Positions 3,065 through 44,941 of a DNA stretch of 46,459 nucleotides are shown here, piece after piece. Source of the stretch: Persicobacter psychrovividus (GTDB lineage Bacteria; Bacteroidota; Bacteroidia; Cytophagales; Cyclobacteriaceae); NCBI RefSeq assembly GCF_036492425.1, contig NZ_AP025303.1, positions 1-46,459 of the forward strand, in the 5' to 3' direction. The translations under genes were made by a program, and so were the position numbers. The notes under the pieces are model-generated. The model had not been told where the DNA came from, made no database searches, and worked only from the letters and a program-made list of their open reading frames with translations. Positions within the stretch are counted from its first letter, which is position 1. Each line of letters opens with the position of its first letter.

Positions 3065-4798
3065 ATTGTGATTGCTTTCAAATTACAGACCTGGCACCGG
3101 TTCTCATTATCCGGTTGTCGGTTGTAATTTGCTTTCAAATTGGTACCTTTCACAGGAATTATTAGAATCAAAAGACCCTCTACCTGTTTTGAATTGCTTT
3201 CAAATTGGTACCTTTCACAGGCTGCTTGCTCTGCGACAGGCCTGTTATTGGTTGTGAATTGCTTTCAAATTGGTACCTTTCACAGGATGCTATCATTTTT
3301 GGAGAGTGGATGAATGGTTGTGAATTGCTTTCAAATTGGTACCTTTCACAGGGGCATGAAGGTCGAAATGACTGACAAGCTGTTGTGAATTGCTTTCAAA
3401 TTGGTACCTTTCACAGGACGACCGCCCTGCTGCATCTTGAGCGATCTGTTGTGAATTGCTTTCAAATTGGTACCTTTCACAGGTAGCTTTCAATTTGTCG
3501 CATTAAGTATGTAGTTGTGAATTGCTTTCAAATTGGTACCTTTCACAGGATTGACGAAAATTCAGTAAGAGAAGAAACAGTTGTGAATTGCTTTCAAATT
3601 GGTACCTTTCACAGGAGCATCCTCATGTTTGGCTTTCCAGTCGTTGTTGTGAATTGCTTTCAAATTGGTACCTTTCACAGGGTGCTCGGGTGATATTGTA
3701 TTCTACCTTAAGTTGTGAATTGCTTTCAAATTGGTACCTTTCACAGGTCTATCGCCTGAATGATGGTAATTTGCGGGGTTGTGAATTGCTTTCAAATTGG
3801 TACCTTTCACAGGTAAAAAAAAATTAAGTCCCCTACTGCTATGTTGTGAATTGCTTTCAAATTGGTACCTTTCACAGGCCTCACAAAGTCGATGTGCAGT
3901 TTCCGATTGTTGTGAATTGCTTTCAAATTGGTACCTTTCACAGGACGTGAGGACGGAAAGGTAATGCGTATAAGTTGTGAATTGCTTTCAAATTGGTACC
4001 TTTCACAGGTGAATAGCAGATTTAACCTCCAGTGCTTGTGTTGTGAATTGCTTTCAAATTGGTACCTTTCACAGGTCATCGAAATTTCACGACCACTTTC
4101 GGTTGTTGTGAATTGCTTTCAAATTGGTACCTTTCACAGGGTGGAGGTGAAAAGGTGCGGCCATTGCGGCGTTGTGAATTGCTTTCAAATTGGTACCTTT
4201 CACAGGTTCACCAACCGCAAGCGAATAGCCCACGTGTTGTGAATTGCTTTCAAATTGGTACCTTTCACAGGATTGGATCTTATCAATGCGGCAGATGAAC
4301 AGTTGTGAATTGCTTTCAAATTGGTACCTTTCACAGGATGCGTTTTCAGTGGCAAACAAACACGGTAGTTGTGAATTGCTTTCAAATTGGTACCTTTCAC
4401 AGGTCAATTCCTGTCCGATCCGATCAAATACCTTGTTGTGAATTGCTTTCAAATTGGTACCTTTCACAGGCCGTCATGACGGCGCACCAGCAATTTAACG
4501 GTTGTGAATTGCTTTCAAATTGGTACCTTTCACAGGTAGCGACGCAGGAAATTGTCAAGGCGATAGTTGTGAATTGCTTTCAAATTGGTACCTTTCACAG
4601 GTGAATCCCGTGCCTTTGATGCTTTTTAGGGGTTGTGAATTGCTTTCAAATTGGTACCTTTCACAGGCCCCCATTTCAAGAAACACCCCATGCCTCGTTG
4701 TGAATTGCTTTCAAATTGGTACCTTTCACAGGTGCCTGCCCCTGAGCTGTGCACCAGTACCGGTTGTGAATTGCTTTCAAATTGGTACCTTTCACAGG
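3065..4798 (+). CRISPR. CRISPR array 1, 27 repeats and 26 spacers
   Basis: The 36-bp repeat begins GTTGTGAATTGCTTTC and ends GGTACCTTTCACAGG. Repeats start at 3121, 3186, 3251, 3317, 3382 and so on to 4763, with spacers of 29-31 bp and a period of 65-66 bp. The first repeat (about 3065) is degenerate in its 3' half, and those at 3121 and 3186 carry one or two changes, so the old end is on the left and the leader end on the right. Pairing with the tracrRNAs requires crRNA transcription on the plus strand, so transcripts run towards the leader, as known in several type II-C loci. Every intact repeat has GG at positions 22-23, where array 2 has AT. The array sits between cas9-A and tracrRNA-A. 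Confidence 0.97.
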
Positions 4799-5028: not shown

Positions 5029-5115
5029 AAAAAAAAAGAGACACACGGCCTCTATTAATTTCGATTGGTTATCCTGCTAAGGATAACATTGTATGAATTG
5101 CTTTCAATACAAATA
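5029..5115 (-). ncRNA. tracrRNA-A (putative), minus strand
   Basis: On the minus strand, TTGAAAGCAATTCA (5092-5105) is the exact complement of repeat positions 5-18 and is followed by TACAA, which continues the pairing with a one-base bulge. A perfect hairpin follows (GTTATCC-TTAGCA-GGATAAC, 5068-5087), then AGAGGCC...GTCTCT and nine Ts, a factor-independent terminator. The body lacks the AATAAGGATTATTCC module found in the tracrRNAs of the other two Cas9s. A distinct scaffold next to a divergent Cas9 points to Cas9-A as its partner. The 5' end is not determined. Confidence 0.7.
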
Positions 5116-5886: not shown

Positions 5887-6069
5887 TCACCTCCCGTCAT
5901 CGCGCCACTTAGAAATACTCCCACGACTCACCCCAGTCATATGATGAATAGCCGTTATGGATAAGCCTGCCTCTAAATGTGCCATCACGCTATCGTACAG
6001 ATGGTGGGGATGGACATTTTTACTTCCTGGTGGGTAAATACCTATTGAAATAACGGGCCCAATATACAT
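5887..6069 (-). CDS. Short HTH protein or recombinase C-terminal remnant
   Basis: 60 aa. The C-terminal half (AHLEAGLSITAIHHMTGVSR then GSISKWRDDGR) has the shape of the homeodomain-like HTH found at the end of Hin-type serine recombinases, in which GVSR is typical. No catalytic domain precedes it, so it is either a very small DNA-binding protein or a fragment. It lies between dcas9-B and the RHH gene. Confidence 0.3.
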   Translation of the reverse strand: MYIGPVISIGIYPPGSKNVHPHHLYDSVMAHLEAGLSITAIHHMTGVSRGSISKWRDDGR

Positions 6070-6121
6070 TTCAAAAATTTCTTACTACCTTAGCACCCGA
6101 CCGTATTAATTTGATAAGGTT

Positions 6122-6163
6122 GTTGTGCTTTGCTTTCACTCTCACCCCTCGGGGTGGCACAGC
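6122..6163 (+). repeat. Lone CRISPR-repeat-like element next to dcas9-B
   Basis: The element begins GTTGTGCTTTGCTTTCA, matching 14 of the first 17 repeat bases, and ends GGCACAGC, like the repeat end CACAGG. Between them is a CACCCCTCGGGGTG hairpin. It lies 50 bp past the dcas9-B stop and about 1.3 kb from array 1. It could be an array relic or a stand-alone guide RNA of the scaRNA type. No second copy with 66-bp spacing was found beside it. Confidence 0.4.
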
Positions 6164-6202
6164 AAAAAGCCATTAGTTCAGTTGAATGAACTAGTGGCTT
6201 TT
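6164..6202 (-). terminator. Terminator of dcas9-B (possibly bidirectional)
   Basis: A long hairpin, AAAAGCCATTAGTTCA / TGAACTAGTGGCTTTT, with a 5-base loop and flanking A and T runs, lies 13 bp past the dcas9-B stop. Confidence 0.7.
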
Positions 6203-6214
6203 GTACTTTATCGG

Positions 6215-9200
6215 CTATTTTATGATCCGAATATCCCCTAAACGCGATATTTTCACTTTGATCGCATCTTTGATTGTTCCTTTGGAGCCAAACCTTGCCC
6301 GGCCAACCAGCTTATCGCTTACCGATTCTCTCGCTTGAACTTCGTATTGATGATTGAACCAATAGTTGCTCCTTGCCAATTTTCTTACAAAAAACAGGTT
6401 TGGGGCTATAAGCTGTTTTTTATCTTTATCAATCGCCTCTTTTAGGTCCTGTAAGGTCATATCAAAAACAAAGGCATCCCCTTGCTGAAGATCCGTAACG
6501 TATTCCCATTCTGGATCTGGCGGAAGCTTTTCTAATACAGCAGGATCTATATCCGTTCGATTTTCCACTGCTTCCCACAACTGCTGAGGATCTTTAATGA
6601 CCACTGGTAAGCCGAACCTTTTTCTACTGACTGCTTGCCAAAAGCTTACTACATGCTCATGCAGTTTGCCTTTTTTATCTTGATACAAAGCAATGTGATG
6701 ATTATTCCCAGGAACAACATACTTCTGATAATGTATGTCATTAGGATGGTCGTAAACATTTATCGGTTCAGCGTCCGATATGCCTGTAAAGCATTTGACC
6801 GTCTTGATCGGAATTTTCTGTTCTTCATTCTGGTACAATGGTTTTTGCCCATTGGCATTAGAGAAAAAACGATTTCCTTCTTCCTTATGCTTTTGTGTAA
6901 TCAACTCACGAAGACGATGATCTATGATTTTAGGCAATTGAGCCTTGGTTAAGAATTGTAGTGGTCTTTTAATCACATATTCCTCCTCCCAAATTTCGAT
7001 CTCGACCTTATCGATGAACTGTTCATACCTGGGGTGTTTGATGGGGTTCTTCCGATACCCCTTAAAAGCTGTTTTAGGATCATTGTTAAAATTAGCCAGA
7101 TGCTCCAGTACCACGGTACGAACTTCACGATCAATAATCGTTTCAGCCACTTCCAAGGTCATTTTAGCATTTAATGAAACCAACCGTGAACTACGGGACT
7201 TATTTTTACCATATATCGACTCCTCAGACAATATACCACGAGGAACAACAATATCGCTTTGTACTGTCCGACCATTCACCTTTCGAAGCCCATTAACAGT
7301 AACCCTTTTCCCAACTTTCTTACTGACAATAACTTCCTTCAGACGATCCTCCATCGATGCCTTCGAAGCAAAAGGAAGTTTGAAAAAGTAACTTGATTTC
7401 CCACTACCAGTATTTGCACCTATCAATAAAAGGTGCTGGTGGCTGGTGCCTGCTACCGTCATGGCATTGAGTGCAAAATACCTTCTATCCTCTCTTTTTT
7501 TCCAAGAGATAATATCCTCATATTCATTATGTTGCTTTTTTACCGTTTTCGTTAAGTCTGCCTGCTGAAAGCGGCTAATATTTAGCCCTTTAATGAGGTT
7601 ATCAAGTCCCCACTCTTTCTTCAAAAAGGTAGTTATAGCGGCATCTGTACTATGTACCTGATGACATACTTTACCTAAAACTTCTTTGGTCTTTTGAACA
7701 AAATATTTGTGCTCCTTTAGTCTAAATTCAATAAAATACGATCCCTCATCAGGGTACTTTTGAAGAAACCGCTTATGTTTGGTCGGGCTGATCTTTCGAC
7801 TGTATGCCTTTATGAACTCAATATATTCCAAAAAAATCTTTTCCCCTTTTTGCTTCATATATCCATAAACAGTATGGTCAGCACGGTTTTCACCGAACCG
7901 TTCCTTAGTAGGGACAAGCATTTTATTATTGAATCCCTGATCAATTTTTGCCCCCAATGAAATCGGTAAGACCTCGTAAGCTCCCTCTCTAAATAATTCG
8001 TCAATAGCAATCTCCTTGTTTAGGGCAATAGGAGAAAAACCGCCGAACTCTTCCCATAGCTGGTATTTTTCAATATTTCGAAGCGTCCCAGGTATTCCAT
8101 CCTGCTCAAGAATATCACGAATGTGCTCCTTTTCTTTTTTTACTTGTTCAGCGTGTCGGTAAGCATTTTGCCGTTCCCGAAGACTTTGCTTTAACTCTCT
8201 CCCCACTTCAAAGATTATCTCATCAGGCCTCCCAAAACGATCATCACCAAGGAATGAATTGAGCTGGTGGATCAATTGATTCATCACCTTTTCAAGCACT
8301 GGTTGCAACAAAGCTCCTTGTGGTACCAGCTCCAACTTATCCAACAATTCAGTTTCTACTTCTTGATAATTATGCTCAGGAAAAGTATTGTACCCTGCTT
8401 TTTTTAGGGATTCAGCAGCAGTATTTCCTTCCATCAAATAAGGAAGGGTCTTTCTTATTGCTTTCACGCTTTTATCCCCATAGCCCATATCAAAAAGGTT
8501 GAGCTTGGACAATGCTTCAGCTTCGTGCTCGCTCACGGGTAAATCTTTTAAAATCTTTGCCTGAGCATGTTTTTGAGGTAAGGAATAAATAATATGCCAT
8601 AGCCTGAACAGGGGAGTATGTTCAAATTTATTTGAGACCTGCTTTCGGTTATTCTCTATGGTTTCTACGCTATAATGAAAGCTCAAAATTTCACCTTTGC
8701 GTTCATTCAACCGAAGAATATCATTTAACATGACATAAATTGGAAAGCCCTCCAAGCCACCACGATCAATAGCGTGTCCCAACGACCATCCCTGTTCAGG
8801 GCTCAACTTCAAAATAGACTGTATCTTCTTAGCCGTTAGTTTCTTTGCAGTCATCCCCGCCTCAAAAATGGCTTGACGCTGCTCTTGATCTAATGTCAAA
8901 CAATGCCCTTCTCTATTGGTAATTCGAAGGTCATTGATACTTTCCCATAAACGAGCCACCTGATAAATTGGACTACTCAAAGGAGCTACTTTCGGTCCAA
9001 TCCATTTATCGCCTTGTTGCTTTCCTTCCAACTTACAGATCAGCAAAGGATCCCTTTTTGCCTTTAATGGACGCTGATAGAAAAGGGTTTCTTCCTTTAT
9101 TTTGCGATAATTGATTTTATTGAAAATTTCAGGATAGTAAGTTTTTTGCGTGTTCCAAATAGAATCAAATTCTTGTTCGTATGCCGCCCTTGGAAGAATA

Positions 9201-9763
9201 ATTCCCCTAACTTGAAAGTGTTGGTCCCTAAGCATTCGCTCATAAAAATATTGCCCAACCGTCTGTCTCTCCCTCAGTATCCGCTGATGCCAATCTTTCA
9301 TTTGAGCAATAAATTCTGAGTTATTTCCGGAGAATTCTTTTCCATTATCGGCGTACCCTCTTCTTTGGATAAGATGCATGAAAACACGACCAATTTCAGA
9401 CAAAGGTAACTTTTCCGTAGCCGCTTTGGCTCGAAGCTCCCACAATGGAAGTTTATCCATCCGAAGCACCTGCTCTTCTGTTGGCGCCATATTCAGTGAC
9501 TTCAAAATAATAGCCAACTGAGATTTACGTTGCTGAAACCGATCCAGTCTTCTCCTTTCCAGCCTATGATTTGTCCGGACTTGATTTTTGGAAAAGGCAA
9601 CACCCCGCTTAAATTTAATGATCTCCTCCGGATCCAAATTCACCACCCGAACACCTGCTCCAATTATTTTGTACTCATCATTGGTTTGCTTCTCTACAAA
9701 AGCCCAACCGATATGCTCCGTTTCAATGGAAAGTCCTAAGATTTTTTTTGAGGAATTAGACAT
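6215..9763 (-). CDS. dCas9-B, catalytically inactive Cas9 (1182 aa)
   Basis: A full-length paralogue of Cas9-C; the C-terminal domain aligns almost without gaps. The nuclease residues are lost. RuvC-I reads ILGLSIETEHIGW (Asp to Ser at 12; Cas9-C has ILGLDLGPASLGW). The HNH core reads YEVLPISLGA at about 599 (Cas9-C YEVEHIIPKS, so Glu-His to Leu-Pro). RuvC-III reads YFALNAM at about 764 (Cas9-C HHALDAI, so His to Phe and Asp to Asn). RuvC-II Glu (IIFEVGREL) is kept. The arginine-rich bridge helix (HRLERRRLDRFQQRKSQ), the QRRGYA motif and the PAM-side domain are intact, and the frame has no stop or shift. The ATG at 9763 is preferred to the GTG at 9766. It should bind tracrRNA:crRNA and DNA without cutting. 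Its own tracrRNA is divergent upstream. A P-loop-like ANTGSGKS lies at about 784, in a segment that differs from Cas9-C. There is no cas1 or cas2 here. Confidence 0.93.
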   Translation of the reverse strand: MSNSSKKILGLSIETEHIGWAFVEKQTNDEYKIIGAGVRVVNLDPEEIIKFKRGVAFSKNQVRTNHRLERRRLDRFQQRKSQLAIILKSLNMAPTEEQVLRMDKLPLWELRAKAATEKLPLSEIGRVFMHLIQRRGYADNGKEFSGNNSEFIAQMKDWHQRILRERQTVGQYFYERMLRDQHFQVRGIILPRAAYEQEFDSIWNTQKTYYPEIFNKINYRKIKEETLFYQRPLKAKRDPLLICKLEGKQQGDKWIGPKVAPLSSPIYQVARLWESINDLRITNREGHCLTLDQEQRQAIFEAGMTAKKLTAKKIQSILKLSPEQGWSLGHAIDRGGLEGFPIYVMLNDILRLNERKGEILSFHYSVETIENNRKQVSNKFEHTPLFRLWHIIYSLPQKHAQAKILKDLPVSEHEAEALSKLNLFDMGYGDKSVKAIRKTLPYLMEGNTAAESLKKAGYNTFPEHNYQEVETELLDKLELVPQGALLQPVLEKVMNQLIHQLNSFLGDDRFGRPDEIIFEVGRELKQSLRERQNAYRHAEQVKKEKEHIRDILEQDGIPGTLRNIEKYQLWEEFGGFSPIALNKEIAIDELFREGAYEVLPISLGAKIDQGFNNKMLVPTKERFGENRADHTVYGYMKQKGEKIFLEYIEFIKAYSRKISPTKHKRFLQKYPDEGSYFIEFRLKEHKYFVQKTKEVLGKVCHQVHSTDAAITTFLKKEWGLDNLIKGLNISRFQQADLTKTVKKQHNEYEDIISWKKREDRRYFALNAMTVAGTSHQHLLLIGANTGSGKSSYFFKLPFASKASMEDRLKEVIVSKKVGKRVTVNGLRKVNGRTVQSDIVVPRGILSEESIYGKNKSRSSRLVSLNAKMTLEVAETIIDREVRTVVLEHLANFNNDPKTAFKGYRKNPIKHPRYEQFIDKVEIEIWEEEYVIKRPLQFLTKAQLPKIIDHRLRELITQKHKEEGNRFFSNANGQKPLYQNEEQKIPIKTVKCFTGISDAEPINVYDHPNDIHYQKYVVPGNNHHIALYQDKKGKLHEHVVSFWQAVSRKRFGLPVVIKDPQQLWEAVENRTDIDPAVLEKLPPDPEWEYVTDLQQGDAFVFDMTLQDLKEAIDKDKKQLIAPNLFFVRKLARSNYWFNHQYEVQARESVSDKLVGRARFGSKGTIKDAIKVKISRLGDIRIIK

Positions 9764-9829: not shown

Positions 9830-9918
9830 TCAATTTGTATCGAAAGCAAATCACAATAAGGATTATTCCGTTGTGGAAACATTTACGGTAGTACTGAAAA
9901 GTATTGCCGTTTTTTTTG
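9830..9918 (+). ncRNA. tracrRNA-B, divergent from dcas9-B
   Basis: The anti-repeat GAAAGCAAATCACAA (9842-9856) pairs with repeat positions 2-16 with one mismatch. TAAGGATTATTCCGTTGTGG follows, the nexus type of II-C tracrRNAs, and the end is a stem ACGG...CCGT with eight Ts (to 9918). Upstream CAATTTG can also pair with the CAAATTG of the array 1 repeat. It is very similar to tracrRNA-C. Retention of a well-formed tracrRNA argues that dCas9-B is functional. Confidence 0.88.
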
Positions 9919-10879: not shown

Positions 10880-11518
10880 TCAAATCGACCGGATGACTTC
10901 CAATAATCGAAACATTTCGCTCTTTGCTTGGCTCATTTCTTGAATATCAAAATTCCCCAAGCTTGTAGCTCTGTTATTCGCCGTAACTTGCTCTGGTTGG
11001 AGTTTTAGATATAAATCTAAACGTCCTTGTTTGTAATATCGCTCTGACTTTTCATAGCCTTCCAATACCGAACCCTTAAATAATTTGACTACGTTCGCAT
11101 AATCACTAAAATATCGGCTTGTTTCCCTGAGGTGCAACAAATACCAAAACTCCAAGCAAGGCGTATTCACAAAAATATGTACATTCTCCAACCCTGAAAT
11201 CTCACGGTAATACTGCTTAAATTCCTGTTGAGGTGAAGGCGACTGTTTTGCCGACTTATTCTCCCATTCTCGTTGTTCTTTTAGTATGACATCCAGGTCA
11301 ATGAGCCAAATCACCTGGTCATAGATCCTTGAATTGACCATGACTAAATCATATTGATCCGCCATTTTTTTCTTTTTGGGGAGCTCAGGTTTGATATCTA
11401 TATGTCGAAGATTTTCATGCTGTTTGAGCATTTGGAGGTACCATATTTCAGTTTCTCCATCGACTATGATAGAATATTTCGGTTTTGCCTTTCGAACTTT
11501 CCTATTTGATCTGCCCAT
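10880..11518 (-). CDS. rloB: RloB-like Toprim-type protein
   Basis: 212 aa. The N-terminus is basic (MGRSNRKVRKAKPKYS), then IIVDGETEIWYLQML, the Toprim-like Glu motif in its GETE form. VIWLIDLD follows (DxD, about residue 70), then NTPCLEFWYLLHL (about residue 115), the diagnostic RloB signature. Known RloB-family proteins are predicted metal-dependent nucleases working with an SMC/ABC-like ATPase, in the general logic of OLD and PARIS-type defence. It overlaps the 3' end of rloA by 17 bp, so the two are translated from one mRNA. Likely role: the effector of a two-gene anti-phage or abortive-infection system. Family call is firm; the substrate is unknown. Confidence 0.8.
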   Translation of the reverse strand: MGRSNRKVRKAKPKYSIIVDGETEIWYLQMLKQHENLRHIDIKPELPKKKKMADQYDLVMVNSRIYDQVIWLIDLDVILKEQREWENKSAKQSPSPQQEFKQYYREISGLENVHIFVNTPCLEFWYLLHLRETSRYFSDYANVVKLFKGSVLEGYEKSERYYKQGRLDLYLKLQPEQVTANNRATSLGNFDIQEMSQAKSEMFRLLEVIRSI

Positions 11519-12809
11519 CCTCGAAATTTAAAAAATAGTCATTCAATTGAGGGGTAGCACCGAGCTTCCCGATTTTATAGGCATTATACACTGAGCTGGT
11601 ATTACGAATAGTTTCCGAACCAAAATCATCCAGTGCGTACAAATCCACCGCTCCAGAATTTTCTTCCTTCTCGGTAAACCAAATGGTGTCATTCCGTAGC
11701 AAATCTTTCTCTAAAAACAACTCCCTATTATGAGTAGTGGCGATTAACTGAGCATCTTCACTGTTCGTAAGGAAGGTTAATAAAAAGAATTTAAGCAAAT
11801 CGGGGTGCAAGGAAGACGCGATTTCATCAATGGGAAAAATAGAAGCGGTGCGTGTCATCATTTCTAATATTCCACTGAACTGATAATATCTTTGCGTGCC
11901 TCGGGATTCTTGCTCGTAAGCAAGTGGGTAAGTTTTTCCTTCGATTTGATGATCAAAAAACAACCGAGTGTTATTGATCTTTTTTTGACCTTTCAAGTCC
12001 TCAACAACCTGTCCTGGTAAATTCAACTTCATAAACTGAAGCAAATCATCGGTTACCTCTATTTCCTGCTTCTCCAAACGGATTTCAGAAATATTAAAAT
12101 CGGCTTTTTGAAGGATCGTTATTAATCGATCAGCTTGAATCTGCCCCGCTTCAATTCTTTTTGTGATGTAAGAAAATAGATCAGTTGAAGGAAGGACAAT
12201 CGGTTTTAATGCATGCTTAAACCAGTCATGTACATTCTGAAGTTCCGGTGCATCGAAATTGGTCTTTAAATATGCCCCAAGCACAGTATTATTCCAAAGT
12301 GTATTAGCGACCAGGCTGTTCTTATACTCACTACTAACTTTGACCTTGGAGCCGAAAGTAATCTTGGCCAATTTTTTATCTACATCCGTTGTTCTGGAAA
12401 AAACCTTGGCTTTGTTCGGAGAGAAGAAATAAAGTGTTTCAGCCAATACAGCCGAAGTGTTCACCTCCAACTCGTACAAATATCGAACATCCTTATATAC
12501 AAATTCTAAACTAAAGTTAGAAGGTTGGTTTCTACTTGTCTGATCTAATAAAAAAGGGCTAAAATCAATGAGGCTGTCTTTTGTATCTAAAGGATCCAAT
12601 ACCAGTTGGCGAACAAATTCCAAAGCTTCCAAAATAGTGGTCTTACCTGAGGCATTAGCCCCAAAGATCAAAGCCATCTTTAAGATACGCTTATTTCCTT
12701 TCTTACATACATAATAGTCTTCCAGCTCTTCAGATTTGGTAGCTTCAAACGAAAGACATACCTCCTCCTTAACCGCTTTAAAGTTCGAAAATTTAAAGTT
12801 TACAATCAT
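11502..12809 (-). CDS. rloA: RloA-like AAA/ABC ATPase
   Basis: 435 aa. It opens MIVNFKFSNFKAVKEEVCL, the typical start of AAA_15/OLD-like ATPases. The Walker A is LIFGANASGKTTILEAL (about 48-64). The C-terminal half has a signature-like ESRGTQRYYQFSG (about 303), Walker B IFPIDEIASSLHPDLL (about 323) and a switch-His region QLIATTHNRELFLEKD (about 355), as in SMC/RecF-type ATPases. It is the sensor or motor partner of the overlapping rloB. The promoter region carries a perfect TTTGTAA-N5-TTACAAA palindrome 13 bp before the ATG. Intact and of normal length. Confidence 0.82.
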   Translation of the reverse strand: MIVNFKFSNFKAVKEEVCLSFEATKSEELEDYYVCKKGNKRILKMALIFGANASGKTTILEALEFVRQLVLDPLDTKDSLIDFSPFLLDQTSRNQPSNFSLEFVYKDVRYLYELEVNTSAVLAETLYFFSPNKAKVFSRTTDVDKKLAKITFGSKVKVSSEYKNSLVANTLWNNTVLGAYLKTNFDAPELQNVHDWFKHALKPIVLPSTDLFSYITKRIEAGQIQADRLITILQKADFNISEIRLEKQEIEVTDDLLQFMKLNLPGQVVEDLKGQKKINNTRLFFDHQIEGKTYPLAYEQESRGTQRYYQFSGILEMMTRTASIFPIDEIASSLHPDLLKFFLLTFLTNSEDAQLIATTHNRELFLEKDLLRNDTIWFTEKEENSGAVDLYALDDFGSETIRNTSSVYNAYKIGKLGATPQLNDYFLNFEDGQIK

Positions 12810-27474: not shown

Positions 27475-30400
27475 ATGGAGCATTCCAAATCAACTTATCC
27501 AAATCCGCTGAAGACTATCCTCAAGGATAAAATCACAAAGGGATTTAATAAGGGCATTGATCAAATTAACCTTCAAACTGGTGGGGGGAAAACCTTTACC
27601 ACCTGTGAAGTGATTGCTGAGGAAGTCATTCTAAGCGATGAACATGATATTGAACGTGTACTGTTCACAACGCTTCAGTATAAAAATTTACCCGATGACT
27701 TAATGCTTGAGTTGTTGGAGAAAAAAGGAGTGGAAGATGCTTGGCAACATGTGCTGTTGCTGGAATCAAACCGAAAATGGGCTGAAAGGGTTTTTGGTGA
27801 AGGCAGATTACTCGCAGACCAAGACTACTTGAACGCCGTTATTTCATGCTTTAGGGATAGAGAGACTGAATTTAAGGAGATCTTCGATAATCTTAACAGT
27901 GCAGCACTTGAGTACCTTGAGGATCGAAAAAATAAAAGGAAAGGTCAGGAGTCAGAGAAAAATTTCACAAGTGCCTTGTCTCGCATGAAGCAGGCTGTTT
28001 TCGAGGAGGTCACCAAAAAATTAACCGATTGCCAAGAGCAAATAGGAGTTAAGGATTTAACACGGAAACAAACTCTTGGGCTATTTTTTAAAGAAGCGAA
28101 AGCCTGGAGATCAGACGTGGACAGAGATTTGGTGAACGAATTTATTCCCTACCGTTGGCTGGGTGAGTTGTTCCCTGAGATGCGCTGTTGGGAGGCCAAG
28201 GTGATTTTTTTAACCTTTGATAAGCTGTATTATGCCAATAAGATCAATAGCCACCTTTTTGATTCATTGCCGTTAATTCCTGGTTTGAGTGATCCTCAGA
28301 ATTACCTTTTGATTATTGATGAGTTTGACCTGTTCAAGAAGAAGATTGAGGATGTTTATCTCAATAGCACACTCAACCAGCCTTTGGGGCTTTATTCAAG
28401 TGTCAAAAAATTGATTCTTTTGACCGATGAACCCCAATCAGATGTCTCCATTTACCTGAATAATTTTTGTGATAAGTATAAAATAGATCGTCCCTCTTCG
28501 GAAAAATTAGAGAAGAAACGTGAAGGTTTCTCTACGAAGGTGAAAAACCTGAGCGGATTGATTGACATCTACCGTCATTTGGAAGATCGAACGGAAAGTG
28601 CATCCATCCAAAACACGACTTTTTCAACCGATAGAACTAAATTATTTCTTCCCAAATATTCTTATGGTGAACGGGTGCGTAAGGCAGAAAATAGAAATGA
28701 GATCATCACCAATAAGATAGAATATGAACAGGTAGATGATGTTTCCTTAAACTTTTTGACTCGGCAATTACAGCGGTTGCTTACTGAATTTGTTTCGACT
28801 TACGTGAACCTGAGCCTTCAATTATCAAAACAGATAAGTGCAAGAATGTACCAGGAGCATAATGATCAGACCCATGATGTTCAGCTTTTGGTTACCGATG
28901 AAACCATCTTTAAAGCGATTTTATACCATTATGGTATCGCACCTGGGGATCCATTGTATGTGGGAATGATGGAGCTGAGGTTTATTTTTACGGTTCTGAG
29001 AGGGAATAAGATATTAGATGTTCAGGAACCATTTTTGGATTTGATTGCTGTCAAAACGGAGGGATCTACCTCTATTGACCAATGTGATATTCACCTTTTC
29101 CGGTTGATGCGTGCCGAATACCTGATGGCCAGCTTCTCGGACCGATATCAAATCATTGGACTTTCGGCAACGGCATTGCTTGAAGGATTGGGCACAAACT
29201 TCAATCATGAACTTCTCGAAAAAATATGTAGCAGATTTGACTCACTGAATGCCAAAGAGTGCAAAAGCATTCAAAAGGTGCATGATGACTACCAGCAAAA
29301 ATCCTTCGAGAAAAGAGATATAAAGACGGGGATCATCAAATGTCCGAAGAAGCCGAAAGTGGATGATCTAAAAGTTTTGTTGCCATCTTATGCGACTGCA
29401 CCCGCTAAAATTGCCAAGCTATCCACCTTTGCCGGAAAATTTGAGGGGAAGTCATATCAATTAAGAAGATTGATCAAATTAGCCATGGCCTACAAAGAAA
29501 TGATTACCCGACCACGATTAGTTACGGGGCTTTTCTTTGCTCCCAATTTATTTTCTGAAAGTACGGATGCTGACTACCAGCGTAAGGAATTGAAAGAACT
29601 ATTCACGATGGTTTATCGGGATGTTTTTGATGTGGATCATAAAGTGGCTAAGGAGAAGGTAAATGAAGCTATAAAGTTTATTTCTACCGATAAGTTTGAA
29701 GAGGGTATGAAAGCCTTTGACGATTCTCTGAAAGACATCCAGCCAGACGATTTTGGGAAGTTTAGAGATCATCGGATTATCATCACTTCCTATGGCACGA
29801 TGGGGGCTGGAGTGAACCCGCAGGTTAGCCGACGTGATTGGATGGAAGTGGTACAGGTGGATCCTGATCATCCCAATAAATCAGAAAAGGTCGATGTGCA
29901 ATTTATCTACTGCGAACAGAAAAGTTTTATCACACCTGTTTTGAGCGGAAATAAGGCGGTTGAGCTGAAAGATAAATTGAGCGCCATTTACACCATAACA
30001 GATATGGTGGATTTTGGGATGATCAGCCACTTCGGTGGAATAAAGGCGATGCAGTCGTTCATTTCCTCTCCACGTTATCCAAAACACCCAATTATTGTTA
30101 ATGAAGTAAAAAAAGGTTCTTCTTATTATGTCGATGCCGTGAATTATTGGGTAATTCAGGCCTTAGGTAGGGGATCAAGATCTAACTGGAAGCCGATTGA
30201 TTCGATGTATATGGTAGATGATGAAACGGCTGAATTTATAGCCTTACACGAACTCTCGGATAAAAATTACTACACGGCCGAGTTTCAACTTCTACATCAA
30301 TATTGTGTCGAGCATAGTGGGGAAAAAACCATAGAAAGAGTGAGCCCAGAGCAAAGTCATATTCTGAAGATGGTCAATAAATCTATTGAAAGTGCGAACT

Positions 30401-33504: not shown

Positions 33505-33540
33505 AGGAGCACTACGGTTGTGGTGCTTTTGTTTTTTTAT
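33505..33540 (+). terminator. Terminator of the helicase operon
   Basis: An imperfect stem, AGCACTAC / GTGGTGCT, is followed by a T-rich tail ending at about 33540, 28 bp past the stop of the 761-aa gene. It also faces the end of the convergent 33540 gene. Confidence 0.55.
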
Positions 33541-34076
33541 TACACGTCATAATTTGAAGTAGATTTTTTGTAATTGTACTTATTAAGTGACTCGTAGACT
33601 TCTTTAAAAGTCATTTTTTCAAAATTGAAATTATCACTTATGTTCAATAATTCATCATATAAATGATCTACAAATTGTTTGTCAAGCTCAGAAATTTGGT
33701 GATTGATTACTAACATAAATTCTTCAGCTGATGTCATTTCAATTGCTTCGATGTCAGATTTATTAGTAAAATCAATTTTGTCATTACATAAAAACTGCGC
33801 TGAGTAAATTCTAATCATATACCTTTGATATTCAGGTAATTTAATAATATGATACTCTATTTCTCTTCTTATTTCTGAAGAAATATTAATATTAATTTCC
33901 CAATTTTCGGCCGTCAAAATTTGAAAAATTTTTGTAGCGTTCAAGCTATTATCTTTAGAAATAAGCGGCTGATCAAAAATTAATGAACTAAAAATTTGAG
34001 GTTTAATTAGTTTATCAACGTAGTCAAGATTCATCACTGCAAGTGTCTTTATTGTTTTCTCTAAAATTGTGTTCAT
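33540..34076 (-). CDS. Hypothetical protein, 178 aa
   Basis: Starts MNTILEKTIKTLAVMNLDYV. It is AT-rich, acidic and mostly helical, without signal peptide or membrane segment. Notable stretches are SSEIRREIEYHIIKLPEYQR and SAEEFMLVINHQISELDKQF. No family recognised. It is convergent with the helicase operon and stands alone, with its upstream side facing the repeat-rich region. Its base composition is even more AT-rich than that of its neighbours, suggesting separate acquisition. Confidence 0.5.
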   Translation of the reverse strand: MNTILEKTIKTLAVMNLDYVDKLIKPQIFSSLIFDQPLISKDNSLNATKIFQILTAENWEININISSEIRREIEYHIIKLPEYQRYMIRIYSAQFLCNDKIDFTNKSDIEAIEMTSAEEFMLVINHQISELDKQFVDHLYDELLNISDNFNFEKMTFKEVYESLNKYNYKKSTSNYDV

Positions 34077-38615: not shown

Positions 38616-39898
38616 GTTGTGAATTGCTTTCAAATTATTACCTTTCACAGGAGGATGGGGACACGATGAATTGCGATCTGGTTGTGAATTGCTTTCAAAT
38701 TATTACCTTTCACAGGTATGTGGATCGGGACACCTTCACATCTTCGAGTTGTGAATTGCTTTCAAATTATTACCTTTCACAGGAAAGACTACTAAGGCTG
38801 TCTACCCGGATAGTTGTGAATTGCTTTCAAATTATTACCTTTCACAGGATTTTTTCGGCTTGACTAAGGACGAAGTTCGTTGTGAATTGCTTTCAAATTA
38901 TTACCTTTCACAGGGACGGGTTCTACTCTTCGTTCGCTGTCACGTTGTGAATTGCTTTCAAATTATTACCTTTCACAGGCGTATTGGTGAGGCTTCATAG
39001 AAGTATTGGTTGTGAATTGCTTTCAAATTATTACCTTTCACAGGGAACACCTTTTGAATGTCCTCAATTTCGGGTTGTGAATTGCTTTCAAATTATTACC
39101 TTTCACAGGCGGATCAGTTCACTCACGACTTTGGCTTCGTTGTGAATTGCTTTCAAATTATTACCTTTCATAGGAAGACTTTGAGCATTCGGTGTTTTCA
39201 CTTCGTTGTGAATTGCTTTCAAATTATTACCTTTCACAGGCACTGTAATAAAGGTATTGCTGTCTGTTCAGTTGTGAATTGCTTTCAAATTATTACCTTT
39301 CACAGGTTGAGTGATGTTAGTTCGGTTAAGCCGAGGTTGTGAATTGCTTTCAAATTATTACCTTTCACAGGTAGCCGAACAAAAATCATTAAACGGATGA
39401 TGTTGTGAATTGCTTTCAAATTATTACCTTTCACAGGACCCCTACGTGGTGCATAAGGTTTTGATTAGTTGTGAATTGCTTTCAAATTATTACCTTTCAC
39501 AGGTTATTGCCGATATGATCGGGAGTGCTGCTGTTGTGAATTGCTTTCAAATTATTACCTTTCACAGGTGTACTTCCTCCTTTTGGGTGGTTGGTATTGT
39601 TGTGAATTGCTTTCAAATTATTACCTTTCACAGGCGTTCGTTACATTCATCCTACTAAAAGCCCGTTGTGAATTGCTTTCAAATTATTACCTTTCACAGG
39701 AATGTAAAAATACATACTAATCCCCCCTGCGTTGTGAATTGCTTTCAAATTATTACCTTTCACAGGTCCGATTTCATTCACATTGCACTTCCCGGCGTTG
39801 TGAATTGCTTTCAAATTATTACCTTTCACAGGAAAACCGACTACCAGACGGCTAAAAATATTGTTGTGAATTGCTTTCAAATTATTACCTTTCACAGG
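38616..39898 (+). CRISPR. CRISPR array 2, 20 repeats and 19 spacers
   Basis: The 36-bp repeat begins GTTGTGAATTGCTTTC and ends ATTACCTTTCACAGG; starts are 38616, 38681, 38748 and so on to 39863, with spacers of 29-31 bp. One repeat (39139) has CATAGG for CACAGG. The array lies beyond cas2 and the leader flank and belongs to locus C. crRNA sense is plus, opposite to the cas genes. Each repeat holds GTTG-N19-TACCTTTC, close to the Bacteroidota promoter form TTTG-N19-TAnnTTTG, so transcription may begin inside each repeat. Confidence 0.97.
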
Positions 39899-39962: not shown

Positions 39963-40001
39963 AAAAATGACCTTTTCTATGATAGAAAGGTCATTTTTTT
40001 T
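39963..40001 (+). terminator. Terminator between array 2 and cas2
   Basis: Hairpin AATGACCTTTTCTAT / ATAGAAAGGTCATT with eight Ts on the plus side. It ends the array transcript and may also serve the convergent cas operon, whose last stop lies within it. Confidence 0.7.
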
Positions 40002-40335
40002 AGAATAATTCCAATTGTTGGGGAGTATCGGGTCGATCTTTCACGTGTTTTCCTCTGAAAAATTGCATGCGTCCAAACTGGGCATCAGTAATCTCAAATA
40101 TGATTACTTCTCCTTGTGGGGGCAACCATTTTTTTACTCTCCGAGTGTGTACTTCTGCATTTTCTCTACTTGGGCAATGACGTGCATAAATGGAATACTG
40201 CATCATGGAAAAACCATCTTTGAGCAGTAGTTTACGGAACAGAACGTAGTCCTTCCGCTCTTTTTTGGTGGTGGTCGGAAGGTCAAAATATACAAATACC
40301 CACATGACTCGATATTTAGAAAGTCTAACATTCAT
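40000..40335 (-). CDS. cas2: Cas2
   Basis: 111 aa. [20 protein letters not shown] carries the first-strand Asp of the Cas2 ferredoxin fold; [20 protein letters not shown] and [20 protein letters not shown] follow. It is the structural centre of the Cas1-Cas2 integrase. It overlaps cas1 by 4 bp, and with no other cas2 on the plasmid it would have to serve array 1 as well. Confidence 0.95.
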
Positions 40336-41240
40336 TGGAATTGAGGATAAAGAATTTGCTTTTCGTCTCCTTCATAACATCTCATCAAACTGGCGGTGGT
40401 TCGTTGGGATGCGACCATCAATGGACTGATTTTATCACTAATCTGCACGTCCAATGTGGGGATTTCAAGTAATCTAATCTTATCACCTTGTGTTAGTTCC
40501 TCTCCTGGTAATATCCCCTCCAACTCCTGTAAATATTGAAAAATCCAAGCATCCACAAAAGGGCGATATGGTTCCATGACATCATCTGCCAAGCAAAAGG
40601 GATTGTATTTATTCTTATGAAAAATCCCCAATGACGGGTGGCATCCACTGCTCACCAAGGAGCGTGCGATGATCGCCCTTAATACCGCATACCCATAGTT
40701 AAACAAGGCATTGGGAGGACCTGCCTCTCGCCCTCTGCCAACGCCATAGGGGCCAAGTAATTTACTCCAATAATAAGCGGCCGCACGGGCTTCCTTATTA
40801 TCAGTATCCCCACTTTTGACTTCTTCAGCCCACCTGATCAATGGTTGTGGACAATGCCCAAATACCTCCAATACCACCGCCTGATTTTGTATTTTGGACT
40901 GTATTGTTTGTTTCCATAATTGCTTTTTGAGTGGTTGAGCAACCGCAATTTGTCTATGCAATTTCTCTGTGAAGGTTTGATTAGACTCAAAGGGCAATAA
41001 CATGCCATGCGGCATATGTTTTTCATTGCACCAAAGCATGGCGGCATTATTGGCTATCAAAGCATTGCTTAGACCATGAGTGATGCTTACCTGTGGGTGG
41101 TCAATCACGACCAGTCCAATGTCTTCCACAGGAACTTTTTTGCTTGCTTTCCCCACGGCCTCAGGATAAGTTGCCTGAAGCTGACCCAACTGCACATTCA
41201 ATCGACAAGCATTACCGAAATAAAGGGTGCGTTTGATCAT
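40332..41240 (-). CDS. cas1: Cas1
   Basis: 302 aa from ATG 41240 ([20 protein letters not shown]). [20 protein letters not shown] and [17 protein letters not shown] are the N-terminal beta domain. In the catalytic domain are [14 protein letters not shown] (Glu), [17 protein letters not shown] (His) and [15 protein letters not shown] (Asp/Glu), the metal-binding set of Cas1 integrases. It is of the type II-C kind, 11 bp past the cas9-C stop and overlapping cas2. No csn2 or cas4 is present, which fits II-C. Confidence 0.95.
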
Positions 41241-41251
41241 AATAAAAAATT

Positions 41252-44200
41252 TTAGATGATTTCTATTTCTCCTAATCTGCTTATTCTGACTTTTATGGCG
41301 TTGACTATTGTTCCTTTTGATGCTTGAATACACCTCATGGCTTTCTTATCTTTAGGTAAGGATTTTGGTTGTGTCTCGTATTGTTGATTAAACCAAAAAT
41401 TACCTTTGGTCAGCTTCCGAACATAGAATAAATGGGGTGCAATGACTTGCTTTTGATCAGCATGGATCGCTGCTTTTAATTCATCCAGCTCCATATTAAA
41501 AATAAAGTATTCACCCTGTTGCATGGAAAGACGGTACCTCCAATTCAGCTCCTGGGGTAATTTTTGCAATACTGACTGACTAATATCTTCTCTCAGGCCA
41601 ATCTGATCCCATAGCTGTTCAATATCCTCAATAACCACTGGCAAGCCTTCTGTTTTGCGATTCACTGCATTCCAAAAAGTAACCACATGCTCATGCAGTG
41701 CCCCTTGTTGATCTTCATAAATGGCAATTTGATGGTTGTTCTTTGGTGACACATATTGCGTTATCTTATTACCATGAGGGCGATCATCCGTAATGATGGC
41801 TTCTACCTCTTTTAAACCTGTAAAACACCGAATCGATTTTACAGGAATCTTAGAGGCTTCACTTTGATAAATGGGCCGTTCAGTAAAGGTATTTTTAGCT
41901 TTTTCAAAACTACCTTCTGCCTCAATTCGCCTCTCTATTGCAGTCCTGATAGTGTCATCAACAATTTTGGGTATTTGAGCGGCCGTTAATTCAGCCAATG
42001 CTCTACGGATCACATAATCCTCCTTCCACTCATAAACTTCCACAGTAAGCAATGGCTGATTATTTTGCGCATCAATATAGATGGGATTTAGGATATATTG
42101 TTTAAAAGCCTTCTTTGGATTATCTTCAAAAGAGGCCAATCGATCCAATACTTTTTTCTTGAGAAAAGAATTCGTAATGGTTTGTGCGATATCCTTTGTC
42201 AGGCTGGTATTGACTTTGATCTCATTTTTGATCCTATATCTCTTTTTCCCATAGCATGTATCTTGACTCAATGCACCTCTTGGTACAATAATATCCTTCT
42301 GAACCGTCTTTCCCTTTACTTTACGTTTAGAGGTCGTGGCCACCCGCTTACCCGCCTTCCTGCTGATTAAAATACTATTCAGTGCTTCAGCAATTTGTTT
42401 CGGTCGGAAAGGTCGCAACGATTGAACATATTTTTCTATCAGAATCTTTTTCCTCTTGGGGCTTGTTGCCCTACGCTGCTGTTGACTAACCCATTCCATC
42501 ATTTCCTCCCGTGTAGATTGTTGAGCATAAGTATTCAGGCGTTGAATTAAACTGTGAGAGGTGCAAGCGATCACTATTGCATCCAGGGCATGGTGTCGAT
42601 GATCATCCCGCTTGCTCCAGCCGATGATTTCTTCTCTTTCATGTTGTTGCCCATTGTGTTGATAGGGAACCATCTCTGTTTGATCTGCGGTTCTGTATTT
42701 TTCAAGGTTAATTTGCTTTAGTACCTCCTCATAGCCCCAATGTCGGCGCAAAAATGCGGTAACGGTACCACTTGTACTATGAACATGATGACAAACCTGG
42801 TTCAAGATCCTTTTGGCTTCCTTGGCAATGTATTGACTTTCCCTCAGTTGTCGGTTGATGAAATCCTGGGGTATTTGGTCCGCTTTGCATAATAATCGAG
42901 CCATTTTGGTCCGGCTTATTTTTTTTCGGTGTTTACCGATAAAAGCCAAATACGCTTCCAAAGCATGAGCTCCTTTGGTCGCCATATAATCATAAGCGGT
43001 CAATTTATTTTTTGCTCCCTGCCCACTGTTCAAATGGTAAGGACAAAGGGTTTTATTGGCAAAACTATCGTCAAAGAAGACTGATTTTGGAATGATATGC
43101 TCCACTTCATAAGTTGCTGTTGGCCCAAAAACCTCTGAAAAGCCGATCTTTTTACCAGGCTCATAAGGCGACTCATAATCAAACTCCTTCCATAGTTGAT
43201 AGCGCATAATATTTTTGTTTGAAGCCTTGATATTAGCCTTCTGGAGCTCTTTTGCTATTGTTTTTCGCTTAGCCTCACGACTTGTTTGTGTCTTAAAGGT
43301 TTTGTTTCGTTCTTCTTTGCTTTGCTTCAACGCTCGCCCCAACTCAATGCAGATTTCATCTGGTCGTCCATATCTTGGATCTTCCAAGAAAGCATTAAGC
43401 TGATGGATCAACTGATTTAATACTTTCTCAACGATGGGTTGCCGCAATGCACCTTTGGGGATCAGCTCCAAGTGATCCACTAATTCCTTCTTTTCTATTT
43501 CTTCCTTAGAAAGACTTTCGGAATGTCGATATCCCGCTTGGATACATGCCTCAGTATAATCAGCACCGCTTTGCAAGTAGGGCAATATTTTACGGATAAA
43601 ACGAATACTTTTATTGCCAAAACCTTGAGTGGAAAAGTCAATTCGAGCAAGTGCCTCTGCCTCCTGTTCTGTTAGGGGGAACTCTTTTAGTAATTTGGAT
43701 TTAGCTTGATCTTCTGGTAGTGAATAAACAATATGCCAAAGCCTGTATAAAGCACTGTGCTCAAAATCATCTGAAATGATTTCGGTCTGCCTACCTGTTT
43801 GTTTATTGACAAATGGTTCCCCTGTTTTTTTAATAACCCGAGTGCGAACTGTTAACTTCATCGCAAGCAGCTCCTCTACTTTAGCATTGCCTTTTAAGAT
43901 GTCTTTAAGTTTGGCATAGGTCAAATTGCCTTGGAGTCCCTTTGTTTCTATGTTTTTATTCGTGTACCACCCATCATCAGGATCAATATTCAATAAATTG
44001 AAAAGCTCCTTTTGACTCAGGTGGTCGGCCTGGTTTAAGGCATTAAATAGCTGGGTCTTTTGTACCAAAGACATTTTCTTTCGTTTCCCATTACTATTCT
44101 TAATACGGATATTATGAATACTTTCCCAAATCTTTTCAATCTGGAATAAGGGGTTACTTTTAGCGGCTACTTTTGGACCAATAAGTCTTCCGTTCTTTAG

Positions 44201-44941
44201 TTTTCCCTCAAATTCACAAACACTTACCAATCTTTTTTGAGATTTAAGATCGCGTTGGTAGTAAATCGTTTCCTTCTTGATTTTCTTATAATTGGCTTTG
44301 GTGAAAACGTGAGGATAATAGGCTTTCTGTGTGTTCCATATCTGATCAAACTCTTCCTCATAAGCTGCTCTTGGAAACACCTTATTCTTTACTCTGTAAT
44401 GTGGGTTCTCTTTTAATTTCTGATGAAAATATTGACCTACTGTAATCTTCTGCCGATGGATTTCTGCATAGCGATTTTCTAATCCTTCGAGGTAATCACT
44501 CTTTTTACTTTCCTCGTCCTGAACCCTTTTTTTGCTGGCGTATCCTCTCCTTTGGTTGAGCTGTAAAAATATCCGACCGATCTCCTCCAAAGAGATTTGT
44601 GTCGTTACCGCTTTGTGCCGAAGTTCCCATAGCTTATTCTTTTCTATATTTAAGATTAAGTCCTCCGAGGGATACATCGATAAAGCTTGAAGGATAGCTT
44701 TTAGATGACTGCGACGTTGTTGATAACGGTCTAAATTTCGCCTTGCCTGACGCTTGATCGTTCGCTGCTGGTTTTTAGTGAACGTTTGTCCTTTGGTGAA
44801 ACCTTCAGCTTCTTCGGCATTCAGTGGAATAATCCTAACGCCTGTTCCAATGATTTCGAAGGTACCATCATCATCTGAGACAACATAAGCCCATCCCAGT
44901 GAGGCGGGACCAAGGTCTAATCCGAGTATTCGTTTTGACAT
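41252..44941 (-). CDS. cas9: Cas9-C, active type II-C Cas9 (1229 aa)
   Basis: RNA-guided DNA endonuclease with all catalytic sites: RuvC-I ILGLDLGPASLGWAYV (Asp 9), RuvC-II DEICIELGRALKQS (Glu, about 531), HNH YEVEHIIPKS with FANKTLCPYHLN (His about 613, then Asn) and RuvC-III HHALDAIVIA (about 784). The bridge helix is RTIKRQARRNLDRYQQRRSH. The C-terminal PAM-side domain closely resembles that of dCas9-B. The start is one of two adjacent ATGs (44944 or 44941); a longer frame to 45058 is rejected because it would overlap the tracrRNA. First gene of the cas9-cas1-cas2 operon. Confidence 0.96.
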   Translation of the reverse strand: MSKRILGLDLGPASLGWAYVVSDDDGTFEIIGTGVRIIPLNAEEAEGFTKGQTFTKNQQRTIKRQARRNLDRYQQRRSHLKAILQALSMYPSEDLILNIEKNKLWELRHKAVTTQISLEEIGRIFLQLNQRRGYASKKRVQDEESKKSDYLEGLENRYAEIHRQKITVGQYFHQKLKENPHYRVKNKVFPRAAYEEEFDQIWNTQKAYYPHVFTKANYKKIKKETIYYQRDLKSQKRLVSVCEFEGKLKNGRLIGPKVAAKSNPLFQIEKIWESIHNIRIKNSNGKRKKMSLVQKTQLFNALNQADHLSQKELFNLLNIDPDDGWYTNKNIETKGLQGNLTYAKLKDILKGNAKVEELLAMKLTVRTRVIKKTGEPFVNKQTGRQTEIISDDFEHSALYRLWHIVYSLPEDQAKSKLLKEFPLTEQEAEALARIDFSTQGFGNKSIRFIRKILPYLQSGADYTEACIQAGYRHSESLSKEEIEKKELVDHLELIPKGALRQPIVEKVLNQLIHQLNAFLEDPRYGRPDEICIELGRALKQSKEERNKTFKTQTSREAKRKTIAKELQKANIKASNKNIMRYQLWKEFDYESPYEPGKKIGFSEVFGPTATYEVEHIIPKSVFFDDSFANKTLCPYHLNSGQGAKNKLTAYDYMATKGAHALEAYLAFIGKHRKKISRTKMARLLCKADQIPQDFINRQLRESQYIAKEAKRILNQVCHHVHSTSGTVTAFLRRHWGYEEVLKQINLEKYRTADQTEMVPYQHNGQQHEREEIIGWSKRDDHRHHALDAIVIACTSHSLIQRLNTYAQQSTREEMMEWVSQQQRRATSPKRKKILIEKYVQSLRPFRPKQIAEALNSILISRKAGKRVATTSKRKVKGKTVQKDIIVPRGALSQDTCYGKKRYRIKNEIKVNTSLTKDIAQTITNSFLKKKVLDRLASFEDNPKKAFKQYILNPIYIDAQNNQPLLTVEVYEWKEDYVIRRALAELTAAQIPKIVDDTIRTAIERRIEAEGSFEKAKNTFTERPIYQSEASKIPVKSIRCFTGLKEVEAIITDDRPHGNKITQYVSPKNNHQIAIYEDQQGALHEHVVTFWNAVNRKTEGLPVVIEDIEQLWDQIGLREDISQSVLQKLPQELNWRYRLSMQQGEYFIFNMELDELKAAIHADQKQVIAPHLFYVRKLTKGNFWFNQQYETQPKSLPKDKKAMRCIQASKGTIVNAIKVRISRLGEIEII

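What the first reader, a model, noticed from the sequence alone, without database searches (positions are those of the whole stretch)
6215..9763. Natural dead Cas9 kept as a full-length gene
Four nuclease residues are replaced (RuvC-I Asp to Ser, HNH His to Pro, RuvC-III His to Phe and Asp to Asn), while the frame, bridge helix, REC and PAM-side domains are intact over 1182 aa. Its own well-formed tracrRNA lies beside it. Cas9-C on the same plasmid is an active relative for comparison. Decay would be expected to leave stops; loss confined to active sites suggests selection for RNA-guided binding without cutting, for example gene repression of host or rival plasmids.
Basis: partly seen in the sequence, partly recalled or inferred. 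Interest (0 to 1): 0.93.

Follow-up and report, generated by a model that had tools for sequence, protein, structure and literature searches.

The report
Natural nuclease-dead Cas9 on a plasmid
A bacterial plasmid carries a Cas9 that has lost both of its DNA-cutting sites but seems to have kept the parts that hold the guide RNA and read the target, so nature may use a 'dead Cas9' that binds DNA without cutting it, beside an active sister Cas9.

Summary
The 1182-aa ORF (minus strand, 6215-9763) is a full-length II-C Cas9 homologue whose RuvC and HNH catalytic residues are replaced at six positions; E519 and N613 remain. None of 125 relatives is substituted there. Its nearest relative found is the active-looking Cas9-C on the same plasmid (44%). 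It does not look like decay: against Cas9-C its nuclease regions evolve 3.4 times faster, the C-terminal third 1.2 times (the last 122 residues alone give 2.1), the last 122 residues are unusually similar to Cas9-C, 32-65 stops would be expected without constraint and none is seen, and its tracrRNA core is one change from consensus. Best reading: kept for guide-loaded, PAM-dependent DNA binding without cutting, probably as a roadblock. Decoy, adaptation and fixed-guide roles remain open: no convincing target and no orthologue was found. Nearest prior art is a phage II-C Cas9 with dead RuvC but live HNH (PMC10910872). A double-dead plasmid Cas9 beside arrays and an active sister is a new variant.

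The parts
6215..9763 (-). dCas9-B, full-length Cas9 homologue without RuvC-I, RuvC-III and HNH catalytic residues
   Evidence: Open frame; Cas9/Csn1 E 1.1e-90; motif columns
9840..9917 (+). tracrRNA-B: anti-repeat (9841-9857), nexus, terminator hairpin (9885-9910) and T run
   Evidence: the start is inferred
6122..6163 (+). Solo repeat-like unit beside the dCas9-B stop; the 30 nt before it (6092-6121) could be a guide. Read on the minus strand it is a long anti-repeat.
   Evidence: 2 mismatches in 17 nt; pairing energies; terminator-like hairpin at 6165-6202
3121..4798 (+). CRISPR array 1, 26 repeats of 36 nt, 25 spacers, no cas1-cas2 beside it
38616..39898 (+). CRISPR array 2, 20 repeats of 36 nt, 19 spacers, next to cas2-cas1-cas9-C; same downstream flank as array 1
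41252..44941 (-). Cas9-C, sister of dCas9-B with all eight checked catalytic residues
45015..45106 (+). tracrRNA-C
   Evidence: the start is inferred
40332..41333 (-). Cas1 (type II), the only adaptation module seen on the plasmid
   Evidence: TIGR03639 E 4.3e-80
40000..40335 (-). Cas2
   Evidence: TIGR01573 E 1.9e-19
5037..5110 (-). Third tracrRNA-like RNA with a different nexus, perhaps that of Cas9-A
   Evidence: Anti-repeat at 5090-5106, fold, terminator-like hairpin; assignment to Cas9-A is inference

Best explanation
dCas9-B shares its most recent found ancestor with the plasmid's active-looking Cas9-C. It lost both nuclease sites and has since been kept by selection as an RNA-guided DNA-binding protein that reads the same or a similar PAM. 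It loads tracrRNA-B with crRNAs of the plasmid's own arrays, whose repeats pair with tracrRNA-B with one mismatch. Bound to a matching target it most likely blocks transcription or replication of competing DNA without cutting it, as Cas12m does. Shown from sequence: catalytic residues lost, frame intact, bridge helix and C-terminal guide/PAM part constrained, tracrRNA constrained. Inferred: guide loading, PAM identity, DNA binding, silencing.
For: Six catalytic columns replaced, none substituted in 125 relatives. Branch of B against C: nuclease regions 3.4 times, REC 2.7, residues 801-1182 1.2. Conserved columns kept: bridge helix 9 of 9, WED/PI 23 of 26 (Cas9-C 23 of 26), HNH 10 of 22 (Cas9-C 22 of 22). 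Last 122 residues 53% identical to Cas9-C, against a mean of 30% and a maximum of 47% between Cas9-C and 112 relatives; PI/overall 1.24 and nuclease/overall 0.83 lie outside all 1929 comparison pairs. 32-65 stops expected without constraint, none seen. tracrRNA-B core one change from consensus in 31 nt, 6.6-11.3 expected. No gene conversion. Cas9 fold predicted with mean pLDDT 83.
Against: A tree of the last 122 residues alone gives a B/C branch ratio of 2.1, so the PAM end is not wholly frozen. REC, which holds the guide-target duplex, lost 17 of 51 conserved columns. No spacer target found. No orthologue, so the pattern rests on one sequence. Array repeats pair with tracrRNA-B with a mismatch. 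PI and WED also touch RNA (recalled), so their conservation does not prove DNA binding. No expression data.
Confidence: 0.5

Rival explanations
1. Decoy or brake: dCas9-B with tracrRNA-B takes up crRNAs and so lowers the activity of Cas9-C or Cas9-A, or of a rival element's II-C system, as proposed for the phage RuvC-dead Cas9.
For: All three tracrRNAs can pair with both array repeats. With the full array-1 repeat tracrRNA-B gives -22.5 kcal/mol against -22.2 and -21.9 for the other two. A precedent is in print (PMC10910872, passages). REC is relaxed.
Against: With the array-2 repeat tracrRNA-B is the weakest of the three (-19.5 against -21.0 and -20.0), so it would compete poorly. A pure RNA decoy needs no PAM reading, yet the last 122 residues are held close to Cas9-C.
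Confidence: 0.18
2. Fixed-guide repressor: the solo repeat unit at 6092-6202 makes one dedicated guide RNA, and dCas9-B with it represses a plasmid or host promoter.
For: The unit pairs with tracrRNA-B at -18.7 and with the other two at -14.8 kcal/mol; terminator-like hairpin after it. Its presumed guide has two 11-nt seed matches on the plasmid against 0.06 expected, one 15-25 nt upstream of ORF 33540-34076; control: 46 array guides gave 2 against 1.27 expected.
Against: Chosen after the fact. With the guide end moved by 2 nt the longest match is 9 nt. The other 11-nt match lies inside the Cas9-A gene. The oldest repeat of array 1 shows the same preference for tracrRNA-B (-18.2 against -16.0 and -10.7), so the unit may be a relic of an older repeat type. 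On the minus strand the unit is a long anti-repeat (-32.4 and -34.1 kcal/mol with the array repeats), so it may be another tracrRNA-like RNA.
Confidence: 0.12
3. Adaptation-only Cas9: dCas9-B picks PAM-flanked spacers for Cas1-Cas2 without endangering the cell.
For: PAM end held close to Cas9-C; the two arrays share a downstream flank, so one Cas1-Cas2 could serve both. That dead Cas9 supports spacer uptake in type II-A is recalled, not checked here.
Against: Cas9-C could do this itself. I found no passage on a role of Cas9 in II-C uptake with the terms used in one paper (PMC6008519, find only). No cas1-cas2 beside dCas9-B.
Confidence: 0.1
4. Decaying gene caught early.
For: Long branch (1.02 against 0.39), fast REC, no orthologues found.
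Against: 0 stops against 32-65 expected (on the assumption that lost nuclease columns were neutral after inactivation). Loss is region-specific: 35 of 80 conserved nuclease columns against 3 of 26 in WED/PI, Fisher P 0.004. tracrRNA intact.
Confidence: 0.05
5. Still a nuclease by another route, for example a remodelled RuvC centre with E519 and new ligands.
For: E519 and N613 are kept.
Against: RuvC-I Asp, RuvC-III His and Asp and the HNH pair are all gone; HNH_4 is no longer recognised.
Confidence: 0.03

Closest known systems
Phage-encoded II-C Cas9 with inactivated RuvC (PMC10910872, passages read; review PMC11656645, section 5 read)
   Same: A II-C Cas9 homologue on a mobile element with lost nuclease residues and a tracrRNA nearby.
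   Different: There HNH is active, no CRISPR array is associated, an SNF2 helicase is, and a decoy role is proposed. Here HNH is also dead, two compatible arrays lie on the same plasmid and an active sister Cas9 is present.
Cas12m, type V-M (PMC10442227, abstract)
   Same: RNA-guided effector that does not cut dsDNA, in print as protecting by strong binding and transcriptional silencing; enriched in plasmids (PMC11656645, passage).
   Different: Cas12, not Cas9; function shown by experiment there, inferred here.
TldR, nuclease-dead TnpB repressors (PMC13418256, passages)
   Same: Nuclease domain inactivated while guide and target binding is kept; mobile-element setting.
   Different: TnpB family, fixed guide with known targets; here no target is known.
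Cas9-C on the same plasmid and other Bacteroidota II-C Cas9 (e.g. CbCas9, PDB 8wr4)
   Same: Sequence family, predicted fold, tracrRNA core, repeat type.
   Different: They keep the catalytic residues; dCas9-B does not and has no cas1-cas2 of its own.

Membership tests
Cas9, II-C clade, by descent | Sequence and fold of Cas9 | tested here: met
   TIGR01865 E 1.1e-90; sister of Cas9-C, support 1.0; Foldseek best match CbCas9 E 4e-42, TM 0.37-0.43
Cas9, II-C clade, by descent | Bridge helix and tracrRNA with II-C nexus | tested here: met
   9 of 9 conserved columns; core 1 change in 31 nt
Active Cas9 nuclease | RuvC catalytic residues | tested here: not met
   S12, Y762, F763, N766; only E519 kept
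Active Cas9 nuclease | HNH Asp/Glu-His pair | tested here: not met
   L599/P600, or a gap at the His in another alignment
Complete II-C CRISPR-Cas locus | cas9-cas1-cas2 with array | tested here: not met
   Present for Cas9-C, absent beside dCas9-B; array 1 is 1.4 kb away
Phage decoy Cas9 (PMC10910872) | RuvC inactive | tested here: met
Phage decoy Cas9 (PMC10910872) | HNH active | tested here: not met
Phage decoy Cas9 (PMC10910872) | No CRISPR array | tested here: not met
   Two arrays on the plasmid
Phage decoy Cas9 (PMC10910872) | tracrRNA pairs with the repeat better than the resident tracrRNA | tested here: inconclusive
   Array 1 repeat: -22.5 against -21.9 and -22.2; array 2 repeat: -19.5 against -20.0 and -21.0
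Binding-only interference effector (works like Cas12m) | Binds target DNA and silences without cutting | not testable with these tools
   Needs binding and silencing assays
RNA-guided transcription factor with fixed guide (works like TldR) | A dedicated guide that matches a regulated promoter | tested here: inconclusive
   Solo unit with two 11-nt seed matches, 0.06 expected, choice made after the fact

The most novel reading that the evidence does not exclude
A natural counterpart of laboratory CRISPR interference: a Cas9 dead in both nuclease domains, kept beside its active sister with its own tracrRNA and possibly a dedicated single-repeat guide, acting as a programmable repressor on the plasmid or its host, its PAM reading kept in step with the active Cas9.
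Probability: 0.2. Interest if true: 0.95.

Novelty: new variant of a known kind. Interest (0 to 1): 0.8.

Why it matters
Dead Cas9 is the best-known engineered repressor (recalled), and nuclease-dead relatives of Cas12 and TnpB occur in nature, but a naturally double-dead Cas9 did not turn up in the listings (phrase searches of an open-access library; most listed papers were not opened). This gene comes with a tracrRNA, two compatible arrays and an active sister as built-in control, so binding against cutting, guide sharing and PAM sharing can be tested directly.

Tried and rejected
Gene conversion between B and C at the C-terminal end (suggested by repeat family D7): rejected. Four-fold sites agree at 0.32 overall against 0.26 by chance, with no region standing out, and B and C are sisters in all five region trees, support 0.954 to 1.0.

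Self-targeting by array spacers: not supported. Apart from the arrays themselves, the best own-genome match is 23 nt at 91%, E 0.77, for array 1 and 34.6 bits, E 0.31, for array 2 (3 genomes of the genus). No array guide matches the window elsewhere with up to 7 mismatches. One exact 23-nt match (G163, E 8.4e-4) covers 20 nt of spacer A1_s18 and 3 nt of repeat; over 196 genomes it is unconvincing. Array 1 matches in Riemerella phages are repeat sequence in the two looked at; in plasmids 3 records matched, one with 11 pieces at 79% and two with 22-25 nt. Array 2 was not searched in phages, and in plasmids only inside a 4-kb query at E 1e-5.

All listed matches except Cas9-C are at or below 39% identity.

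Rows dropped before counts: 5 identical duplicates, own slices L001-L003 and L070. The 125 relatives include pieces of one gene fetched twice (e.g. L013 and L020, L016 and L021). The 1929 pairs are not independent; a nearest-neighbour control of 23 pairs had PI/nuclease at most 1.08 and nuclease/overall at least 0.90, against 1.50 and 0.83 for B-C. The GC3 figure for Cas9-A is wrong (frame off by one) and unused. Rfam gave no match in the window. A paper on II-C spacer uptake gave no passage for the terms tried.

On re-checking I added the PI-only branch ratio of 2.1, the full-repeat energies and the minus-strand reading of the solo unit, all against parts of my reading; the decoy rival is rated a little higher for it.
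Full report
What is there. The window is one whole 46,459-base contig, C12 of 13. A 1377-aa Cas9 (Cas9-A, counted from its ATG) reads across the joined contig ends, so it is most likely a circular plasmid. It holds two CRISPR arrays with nearly the same repeat and three Cas9 homologues: the divergent Cas9-A, Cas9-C with Cas1 and Cas2, and the gene of the finding, dCas9-B. Mobilisation, partition and replication genes were recognised by eye only. The source is unnamed. For one 5-kb stretch the plasmid records matched are mostly Persicobacter, Flammeovirga and other Bacteroidota at 64-73%, plus short transposase matches in Acinetobacter; a Cytophagales-like host is an inference. The other genome of the same species (G049) and of the same genus (G113) show no match at E 1e-20, so the gene is accessory.

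Catalytic residues. Against 26 relatives plus Cas9-C and then 125 relatives, dCas9-B has S12 for the RuvC-I Asp, L599/P600 for the HNH Asp/Glu-His pair (or a gap at the His), and Y762, F763, N766 for the RuvC-III His, His and Asp. E519 and N613 are kept. No relative is substituted at the six changed columns: 111 to 123 of 125 have the canonical residue and the rest are gaps. Three further relatives are canonical. Cas9-C keeps all eight. By the known RuvC and HNH mechanisms (recalled) no catalytic centre is left.

Not decay. dCas9-B and Cas9-C are sisters, support 1.0, with branches of 1.02 and 0.39. The excess is uneven: B/C ratio 3.4 in nuclease regions (1-50 and 481-800), 2.7 in REC, 1.2 in 801-1182; the last 122 residues alone give 2.1. 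Of columns conserved in at least 90% of 112 full-length relatives, B keeps 4 of 8 in RuvC-I, 9 of 9 in the bridge helix, 34 of 51 in REC, 15 of 24 in RuvC-II, 10 of 22 in HNH, 16 of 26 in RuvC-III and 23 of 26 in WED/PI; Cas9-C keeps 8, 9, 49, 18, 22, 23 and 23 (domain limits set by me). If the lost nuclease columns clock the time since inactivation, a gene without constraint would have gained 32-65 stops; there are none.

PAM-side end. In the last 122 residues, taken as the PAM-interacting domain from position (recalled), B and C are 53% identical; between Cas9-C and relatives the mean is 30% and the maximum 47%. Among 1929 pairs of other relatives with overall identity of 38-48%, PI/overall averages 0.85 (maximum 1.23) and nuclease/overall 1.08 (minimum 0.86); B-C gives 1.24 and 0.83, outside both ranges. 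Gene conversion is not the cause. My reading is that B and C are held to the same or a similar PAM. This is the main argument for DNA binding over mere RNA capture, and it is not proof.

RNA partners. tracrRNA-B (about 9840-9917, plus strand) has anti-repeat, nexus, terminator hairpin and T run. Its 31-nt core differs at one position from a consensus that 66 of 83 loci match exactly; 6.6-11.3 changes would be expected without constraint. tracrRNA-C also differs at one. With the first 22 nt of the array repeats the three tracrRNAs A, B, C give -21.0, -19.5, -20.0 kcal/mol; with the full array-1 repeat -22.2, -22.5, -21.9 and with the full array-2 repeat -21.0, -19.5, -20.0. So all three Cas9s could share guides. 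Array 1 has no cas1-cas2 beside it but ends in a flank like that of array 2, so one adaptation module could feed both.

A possible private guide. Beside the dCas9-B stop lies a lone repeat-like unit (6122-6163, 2 mismatches in 17) with a terminator-like hairpin after it. It pairs at -18.7 with tracrRNA-B and -14.8 with the others. Its presumed guide has two 11-nt seed matches on the plasmid against 0.06 expected, one 15-25 nt upstream of ORF 33540-34076, the other inside Cas9-A. Against this: the choice was made after the fact, a 2-nt shift of the guide end cuts the longest match to 9, the oldest array-1 repeat shows the same preference, and on the minus strand the unit is a long anti-repeat (-32.4 and -34.1).

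Structure. AlphaFold2 on 48 sequences gives mean pLDDT 83.3 and pTM 0.61. The 50 PDB rows shown are Cas9 structures as far as titles tell, CbCas9 first (E 4e-42); TM 0.33-0.56 and rmsd 11-23, so the arrangement of domains is unsure. No viral model matched at E 0.001.

What is known. A phage II-C Cas9 with inactive RuvC, active HNH, no array, an SNF2 helicase and a tracrRNA is described as a likely crRNA decoy (PMC10910872, passages; review PMC11656645, passages and section 5). Cas12m silences by binding (PMC10442227, abstract). TldR are nuclease-dead TnpB repressors (PMC13418256, passages). No naturally double-dead Cas9 appeared in the listings.

Verdict. A real, full-length, double-dead Cas9 kept by selection: well supported. 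That it binds DNA chosen by the shared arrays and blocks it: likely, unproven. It works, by this reading, like Cas12m; by descent it is a II-C Cas9 that fails the nuclease test; it is a new variant of a known kind and rests on one sequence.

Noticed in passing
45189-46459 joined to 1-2863, minus strand: Cas9-A (1377 aa) is very divergent: PADLOC Cas9 E 7e-12, no plasmid match, 4 other genomes of 196 with 28-30% identity over about 200-230 aa. Catalytic motifs look present by eye. Possibly an undescribed Cas9 lineage.
   Followed up: partly
27475-33479, plus strand: DdmD-like helicase (PADLOC E 3e-11) followed by a 761-aa ORF without family match that looks Argonaute/DdmE-like by eye: a possible anti-plasmid system on a plasmid.
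   Followed up: no
10880-12809, minus strand: AbiL-like pair: AAA ATPase (PADLOC AbiLi E 2e-73) and RloB (Pfam E 1e-20).
   Followed up: no
36036-36330: Orphan array of five degenerate repeats at 63-66-nt spacing, unlike the II-C repeat; no matching cas genes noticed.
   Followed up: no
7394-7417, minus strand (dCas9-B residues 783-790): A Walker-A-like string, unlike the aligned Cas9-C sequence, in a low-confidence loop after RuvC-III. Probably chance.
   Followed up: no
L178 and L179 (Riemerella phages RAP44 and CRP19): Phage records hold one and three copies of a II-C repeat in an unannotated gap: candidate RNA anti-CRISPR or mini-array.
   Followed up: partly
6048-6071: 24 nt upstream of the solo unit recur at 96% on another contig (C7:16928-16951, E 9e-4); meaning unknown.
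   Followed up: no
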